Source: Lutjanus erythropterus
Taxonomy: Eukaryota; Chordata; Actinopteri; Lutjaniformes; Lutjanidae
NCBI GenBank assembly: GCA_020091685.1
Contig: CM034595.1
Location: forward strand, 40,410,232-40,474,231
Direction: 5' to 3'
DNA: 64,000 bases
Shown here: positions 36,415-57,210 of the stretch, piece after piece
Layout of the letters: each line of letters begins with the position of its first letter
How positions within the stretch are numbered: the stretch's first letter is position 1
The notes under the pieces: model-generated
Told to the model about the DNA's origin: nothing
What the model saw: the letters and a program-made list of their open reading frames with translations, nothing else
Database searches by the model: none
Made by a program: the position numbers and the translations under genes

Positions 36415-36542
36415 ATGTACGGCCTGTATTTGGAAGCAGTGAACGATTACATTAACGAATCCTATGGAGAGGATGTGTGGAGACTGATCGAGAACCGAGC
36501 AGAGATCCCTCATCTCAAGTTTGTCAGACATCAGATGTACAA
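36415..36542 (+). CDS. gyc88E-like: sGC coding exon 1 (residues 1-42 plus 2 nt)
   Basis: Begins MYGLYLEAV, the usual MYG start of H-NOX proteins, and continues through helix A to HQMY. The ATG context is GAAGATGT. Upstream in-frame stop TAA lies at 36367-36369. It ends AA|GTAGGT in phase 2. The preceding 49 nt (36366-36414), after a good polypyrimidine-AG acceptor, are probably 5' UTR of the same exon. Confidence 0.93.

Positions 36543-57210: not shown

What the first reader, a model, noticed from the sequence alone, without database searches (positions are those of the whole stretch)
36415..57210. A vertebrate soluble guanylate cyclase of the invertebrate oxygen-sensor (Gyc-88E) type
Seen: the 815-codon gene has the full H-NOX, HNOBA, coiled-coil and cyclase layout. 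Diagnostic stretches such as [33 protein letters not shown] and LKDPSTG match my recollection of Drosophila Gyc-88E more closely than vertebrate beta1 or mammalian beta2. Known: Gyc-88E and its nematode relatives bind oxygen and act as oxygen sensors; mammalian beta1 is an NO sensor. Inference: this fish keeps an ancient oxygen-sensor cyclase distinct from the NO receptor.
Basis: partly seen in the sequence, partly recalled or inferred. Interest (0 to 1): 0.8.

Follow-up and report, generated by a model that had tools for sequence, protein, structure and literature searches.

The report
Fish oxygen-type cyclase, one of two
This fish carries two genes of the insect-type oxygen-sensing cyclase family, and each has changes in a different half of the shared active site, which suggests that the two proteins work as a pair.

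Summary
The gene is real: ATG at 36415, stop at 57210, with H-NOX, HNOBA, coiled-coil and cyclase regions, no stop inside, and a C-terminal CaaX box (CSIL). It is not beta2: this genome has two separate beta2 genes, and placing the window protein with them is rejected (AU p = 1.4e-34).

The oxygen-sensor inference is only partly supported. The distal-pocket tyrosine of the oxygen-binding class is Phe here, and an Arg replaces the Gly before a metal-binding Asp.

One other gene of this class was found, on contig C8. It keeps the distal Tyr and the metal side but has lost the guanine Cys, ribose Asn and transition-state Arg, which the window copy keeps. Best reading: a heterodimer, C8 as metal-side, oxygen-type subunit and the window protein as base-side subunit, repeating the alpha/beta division of labour. 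Pairing, oxygen binding and activity are untested, and the pattern comes from one genome. A fish gene named 88E-like is already in print, so the class in fish is not new; I found no description of the reciprocal pair.

The parts
36415..36542 (+). Exon 1, start ATG, H-NOX N-terminus ([12 protein letters not shown]...)
   Evidence: donor GTAGGT
37794..37926 (+). Exon 2, H-NOX
39624..39798 (+). Exon 3, H-NOX: proximal heme His (CAC 39672-39674), YxSxR motif, distal-pocket Phe (TTT 39789-39791)
42322..42413 (+). Exon 4, end of H-NOX
44311..44568 (+). Exon 5, HNOBA (PAS-like)
   Evidence: HNOBA exon hit
44673..44787 (+). Exon 6, HNOBA and charged linker
46566..46791 (+). Unresolved linker exon inside HNOBA (contains [32 protein letters not shown]); outer limits among the 6 models printed of 216 found. 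The 11-base exon 45122-45132 of my model is probably spurious
47035..47117 (+). Exon, HNOBA core ([13 protein letters not shown]); its 5' border may lie earlier (46997 to 47035)
47565..47694 (+). Exon, end of HNOBA and start of coiled coil
48115..48261 (+). Exon, coiled coil / linker helix (EQQKYAQ...[13 protein letters not shown])
48873..49019 (+). Exon, cyclase domain, first metal Asp; [11 protein letters not shown] with Lys (AAG 48912-48914) where the verified relatives have Gly or Thr
49793..49949 (+). Exon, cyclase domain, VETIRDAYM: Arg (CGT 49805-49807) in place of the Gly before the second metal Asp
   Evidence: only two places in the genome match this exon
52269..52378 (+). Exon, cyclase domain, intact base/ribose/transition-state motif [17 protein letters not shown] (Cys 52325, Asn 52346, Arg 52358)
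52862..52951 (+). Exon, cyclase domain
54347..54465 (+). Exon, end of cyclase domain and start of C-terminal tail
56841..57210 (+). Last exon, hydrophilic tail ending in CaaX-like CSIL (57196-57207), stop 57208-57210; other frames are open here too, this one was chosen because it splices in frame

Best explanation
The window gene encodes one subunit of a two-subunit, Gyc-88E-class guanylate cyclase; the partner is the paralogue on contig C8 (about 19,884,700-19,894,900, minus strand). In the pair, C8 would supply the metal-binding half of the single active site (Asp, Asp, Arg574 equivalents) and the oxygen-type heme pocket (proximal His plus distal Tyr). The window protein would supply the other half (guanine Glu and Cys, ribose Asn, transition-state Arg, triphosphate Lys) and a second heme domain with Phe in the distal pocket. 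Oxygen bound to the C8 heme would hold the cyclase down and its loss in hypoxia would raise cGMP, as reported for the fly enzymes. CaaX ends would tether the pair to membranes. Shown by sequence: gene structure, class separate from beta2 and beta1, residue states, two such genes found in this genome. Inferred: dimerisation, gas binding, activity, prenylation, hypoxia response.
For: Window and C8 form a 100/100 clade apart from beta1, the two own-genome beta2 genes and the alphas. Window inside beta2 is rejected: AU p 1.39e-34 with verified sequences only, 1.26e-5 with recalled ones added. Of 62 cyclase columns invariant in the window protein and five verified beta-type proteins, C8 changes 7, including C541G, N548H and R552A; of 57 such columns the window changes 2, one being Gly529 (alpha1 numbering) to Arg beside the metal Asp (table). 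Roles of these residues: PMC3591389 (passages) and PMC2576301 (passages). At N548, R552 and K595 C8 departs where the alpha subunits also depart. Window and C8 share 9 of 15 modelled intron positions exactly, the window and either beta2 gene 2. Both copies look constrained: dN 0.33, dS 1.50 over 575 codons.
Against: The window protein keeps both metal Asps, so its Arg and Lys may only weaken its metal side; it could still self-pair. C8 does not copy the alpha pattern fully: alphas keep C541 and F543, which C8 lost, and lack K593, which C8 keeps. The residue pattern comes from one genome; no second fish was available. The enrichment of C8 changes at catalytic columns is post hoc (3 of 5 catalytic columns among 7 changes, P 0.008), and the rows that define 'invariant' include close relatives. 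Partners such as beta2 or beta1 are not excluded. No expression data for this species.
Confidence: 0.5

Rival explanations
1. The window protein is by itself an oxygen-sensing homodimeric cyclase like Drosophila Gyc-88E.
For: Same clade as recalled Gyc-88E; both metal Asps and the listed base-side residues are present; proximal His and YxSxR present, Cys78 and Cys214 absent. Gyc-88E and MsGC-beta3 are reported as active homodimers (passage of PMC1435932).
Against: Distal Tyr is Phe and the F74 position is Met; Gly529 is Arg and the residue three after D486 is Lys. A second gene with the oxygen-type pocket exists.
Confidence: 0.15
2. The window protein is a heme-bearing, NO- or CO-responsive or ligand-indifferent partner subunit, and the C8 copy is a degenerate or regulatory subunit; the pair is not an oxygen sensor.
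For: No Tyr at the distal position of the window protein; broken base side in C8.
Against: C8 retains the distal Tyr, the proximal His and its metal half, and the two genes look constrained. Cyclases of this class are described as weakly NO-sensitive (passages).
Confidence: 0.2
3. One or both genes are decaying copies on the way to loss.
For: Changes at otherwise invariant catalytic columns.
Against: No stop in the modelled coding exons and GT/AG borders; dN/dS about 0.22; the changes fall on different halves of the site in the two copies.
Confidence: 0.1
4. It is the fish orthologue of mammalian beta2 (GUCY1B2).
For: Nearest class by path in the trees; CaaX end shared with one beta2 gene.
Against: Two beta2 genes exist on C4 and C24; AU tests; published zebrafish gucy1b2 primers encode beta2-type peptides (my hand translation of primers seen).
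Confidence: 0.02

Closest known systems
Drosophila Gyc-88E and relatives (atypical, oxygen-regulated soluble guanylate cyclases)
   Same: Domain order, 50.6% identity to the recalled fly protein, proximal His, YxSxR, no Cys at beta1 positions 78 and 214.
   Different: Window copy has Phe for the distal Tyr, and Arg and Lys in the metal half of the cyclase site.
Heterodimeric atypical pairs: Gyc-88E with Gyc-89Da/Db, and C. elegans GCY-31 with GCY-33 (statements)
   Same: Two unlike subunits of one class; in the recalled Gyc-89Da the metal side is altered and the base side kept, as in the window protein.
   Different: In fish the second copy has in turn lost the base side; in the recalled Gyc-88E both halves are intact. 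Worm residues were not examined.
Vertebrate beta2 (GUCY1B2)
   Same: Beta-type subunit; one own-genome beta2 gene ends in a CaaX box. Mouse Gucy1b2 neurons respond to low oxygen (stated in PMC6131590).
   Different: Separate clade; Ile at the distal position, Cys78 and Cys214 present, listed catalytic residues intact.
Canonical alpha1/beta1 NO receptor
   Same: Division of one active site between a metal-side and a base-side subunit.
   Different: Here both subunits keep the heme His, and the split lies within another class.

Membership tests
Animal soluble guanylate cyclase | H-NOX, HNOBA and class III cyclase in this order | tested here: met
   Pfam, (the coiled coil between them was not scored by any tool)
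Gyc-88E / atypical oxygen-regulated class | Groups with Gyc-88E and apart from beta1 and beta2 | tested here: met
   100/100 with recalled fly sequences; separation from beta1 and beta2 with verified sequences
Gyc-88E / atypical oxygen-regulated class | Lacks the two Cys linked to NO sensitivity | tested here: met
   Ile and Phe at beta1 C78 and C214; criterion from PMC1435932 passage, the two positions recalled
Gyc-88E / atypical oxygen-regulated class | Tyr in the distal heme pocket | tested here: not met
   Phe in the window protein, Tyr in C8; criterion from PMC1435932 passages
Gyc-88E / atypical oxygen-regulated class | Binds oxygen; cyclase inhibited by it | not testable with these tools
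   needs spectroscopy and assays
Homodimer-competent cyclase | Full, unaltered set of metal and base half-site residues in one chain | tested here: inconclusive
   All listed side chains present in the window protein, but Gly529 to Arg and the residue three after D486 to Lys; C8 lacks C541, N548 and R552
beta2 (GUCY1B2) | Falls inside the beta2 clade | tested here: not met
   AU p 1.39e-34
Prenylated (CaaX) protein | C-terminal CaaX | tested here: met
   CSIL; prenylation itself not tested

The most novel reading that the evidence does not exclude
Fishes keep the invertebrate-type oxygen-gated cyclase as an obligate heterodimer that evolved anew from a homodimer: after gene duplication each copy lost a different half of the active site, and the heme pockets also diverged (Tyr in one, Phe in the other), so that one subunit senses oxygen and the other supplies the base side. 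This would be a second, independent origin of an alpha/beta-like cyclase in vertebrates and a candidate acute oxygen sensor.
Probability: 0.3. Interest if true: 0.82.

Novelty: new variant of a known kind. Interest (0 to 1): 0.6.

Why it matters
Which molecule lets fish sense oxygen acutely is, to my knowledge, an open question (recalled), and direct oxygen-binding cyclases are known mainly from invertebrates (recalled). A fish pair of this class, with one subunit keeping the oxygen-type pocket, makes that idea directly testable. The reciprocal loss of half-sites would also be a clean natural example of a homodimeric enzyme becoming an obligate heterodimer.

Tried and rejected
Rejected: beta2 orthology. 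Rejected: an extra allele or third copy of the altered exon; it matches two places in the genome, itself and C8. Rejected as likely: read errors for the C8 changes, since its Ala (GCC) and His (CAC, for Phe) codons each differ from every codon of the older residue by at least two bases (codons); its Gly and His (for Cys and Asn) are one base away. The window Arg (CGT) and Phe (TTT) are each one base from Gly (GGT) and Tyr (TAT) codons, so an assembly error or allele there is less firmly excluded.

Led nowhere: relatives in IMG/VR and GTDB (44 and 87 pattern matches, none confirmed). Shared neighbours between the window with 20 kb on each side and the 40 kb around the C8 gene (cyclase exons and short unassigned matches only). 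A text search for the catalytic residues (no paper). Three papers on fly atypical cyclases are not held, so the loss of metal residues in Gyc-89Da rests on recall. Whether window and C8 split before or after the split from insects is unresolved: they pair with support 72/73 only, and C8 next to the recalled fly 88E is not rejected (AU p 0.26); the measurable dS of 1.50 favours a vertebrate-age duplication. The recalled Gyc-89Da is a long branch, flagged as such. The coding-score scan was trained on these same genes, so its scores for their own exons are circular and are not used as evidence; the linker exon and the TNFAIP8-like gene were not in the training set. Structure prediction was not run: the tool takes letter-for-letter translations and this protein is spliced, so I did not submit it. 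In one search the row labelled K593 is really K595; one search has the corrected table. Searches of print for an 88E-type gene or pair in fish; two of them gave one fish paper that names such a gene; one search was too broad to be informative (18,026 papers, 15 listed). The library lacks most subscription journals.

Full report
What is there. The finding's coordinates hold. The spliced protein has HNOB, HNOBA and Guanylate_cyc at E 2.7e-51, 2.7e-71 and 2.9e-67. The last exon, taken in the frame that splices on, ends in CSIL, a CaaX box. One own-genome beta2 gene ends in CVVL; a candidate end of the other is CALL and a candidate end of the C8 gene is CSVS. These three were found by looking for such endings, so they are weaker than the window's, which was noticed in an exon already chosen.

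The genome's set. The window lies in a 937.6-Mb assembly of 444 contigs. HNOBA gives 17 exon matches, which I resolve into seven genes: alpha1 and beta1 side by side on C3, alpha2 on C4, beta2 on C4 and again on C24, the window gene on C5, and a second gene of the window's kind on C8. HNOB gives 11 matches at five of these seven loci. The altered cyclase exon of the window matches only itself and C8 (80% identity over 169 bases).

Which class. With verified sequences only (own genome, human and Manduca chains from the PDB; 10 rows) window and C8 form a 100/100 clade and the two beta2 genes another. Holding the window protein with beta2 costs 106 log units, AU p 1.39e-34. With recalled fly and rat sequences (13 rows), window, C8, Gyc-88E and Gyc-89Da form one 100/100 clade, unresolved inside, and rat beta2 joins the fish beta2 genes. 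Identities: window to C8 55.6%, to recalled Gyc-88E 50.6%, to own beta2 37.1 and 37.6%, to human beta1 34.2%. Window and C8 share 9 of 15 modelled intron positions exactly; the window shares 2 with each beta2 gene and 2 with beta1. My recall was exact to 618 of 619 and 688 of 690 residues for two human proteins that could be checked; the fly and rat sequences could not be checked.

The heme pocket. Fitzpatrick and colleagues (PMC1435932; section 8 read, passages) state that the basal, oxygen-regulated clade has Tyr at position 141 of their alignment (beta1 145), that all beta1 and beta2 have Ile there, and that the nematode-specific clade has its Tyr at 138 instead, with Phe in GCY-37. In this fish, at the beta1-145 column, C8 has Tyr, the window protein Phe, both beta2 genes and beta1 Ile. 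Three residues earlier, which I take to be their 138, C8 again has Tyr and the window protein Phe (context strings). Window and C8 keep the proximal His and YxSxR, and both lack Cys at beta1 positions 78 and 214. At position 74 the window protein has Met for Phe. So the class is right, but the residue most tied to oxygen binding is missing from the very gene that was reported.

The active site. In canonical sGC the site is shared: the alpha subunit gives D486, D530 and R574; beta gives E473 and C541 (guanine), N548 (ribose), R552 and K593 (phosphates), and alpha or beta homodimers are inactive (PMC3591389, passages). Several atypical cyclases are predicted to be homodimers, and algal CYG12 has the full set of residues for it (PMC2576301, passages). 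In this fish both beta2 genes keep every listed residue. C8 keeps D486, D530, R574, E473 and K593 but has Gly for C541, His for F543, His for N548, Ala for R552 and Asn for K595. The window protein keeps all listed base-side residues and both metal Asps but has Arg for the Gly before D530 and Lys three residues after D486, where the verified relatives have Gly or Thr. Of 62 columns invariant in the window protein and five verified beta-type proteins C8 changes 7, three of them among the five catalytic base-side columns (post hoc hypergeometric P 0.008); of 57 columns the window changes 2, the Gly and a Phe to Tyr elsewhere. The C8 loss is firm; the window's metal-side change is suggestive, since the Asps remain. 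C8 resembles the alpha subunits at N548, R552 and K595 but not at C541, F543 and K593.

How it would work. The simplest account is a heterodimer with one working site: metals from C8, guanine and transition-state contacts from the window protein, with oxygen read by the C8 heme. Fly atypical cyclases are stimulated when oxygen is absent (Morton abstract in PMC2990333, passages) and are described as Gyc-88E/89D heterodimers (PMC9075734, passage); worm GCY-31/GCY-33 are thought to act as heterodimers (PMC3115024, passages). The recalled Gyc-89Da lacks both metal Asps while recalled Gyc-88E is complete, so the fly pair would be one-sided and the fish pair two-sided. Both fish genes look constrained (dN 0.33, dS 1.50 over 575 codons, linker and tail left out), and by dS the pair is not older than the two beta2 genes (dS 2.10); both values are near saturation.

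What is known. Mouse Gucy1b2 (beta2) neurons respond to low oxygen (statement in PMC6131590, passages), and zebrafish gucy1b2 is expressed in olfactory neurons (PMC4480006, passages). A pikeperch gene named gyc88e, soluble guanylate cyclase 88E-like (LOC116049087), is reported as highly transcribed in juvenile brain (PMC12673963, passages); the name looks like automatic annotation, which is my inference. So the class is already named in fish. I found no paper on a fish pair, its residues or its gas binding in searches, of which 34 was too broad to count; most subscription journals are not in that library.

Verdict. The oxygen-sensor claim for this single protein is weakened and moves to its C8 partner or to the pair. 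The reciprocal half-site pattern is the new element, seen in one genome and untested in any assay.

Noticed in passing
Just past the window: window coordinates 67560-67865 and 69563-69802 (locus L026): Two exons of a TNFAIP8-family gene (PF05527, E 9.8e-75 for the joined translations) lie about 10 kb downstream of the cyclase and could serve as a synteny anchor.
   Followed up: partly
G000:C4 about 6.37 Mb (L013, L014) and G000:C24 about 2.0 Mb (L015, L016): The fish has two beta2 (gucy1b2-type) genes, both with the listed catalytic residues intact; one ends in CVVL.
   Followed up: partly
G000:C3 18.90-18.93 Mb (L009-L012): alpha1 and beta1 genes sit side by side.
   Followed up: no
window 36415-36542 compared with L018 (C8 exon 1): The first intron differs in place and phase between the two copies (phase 2 against phase 0, 8 bases apart), an apparent shift of an intron border.
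   Followed up: no
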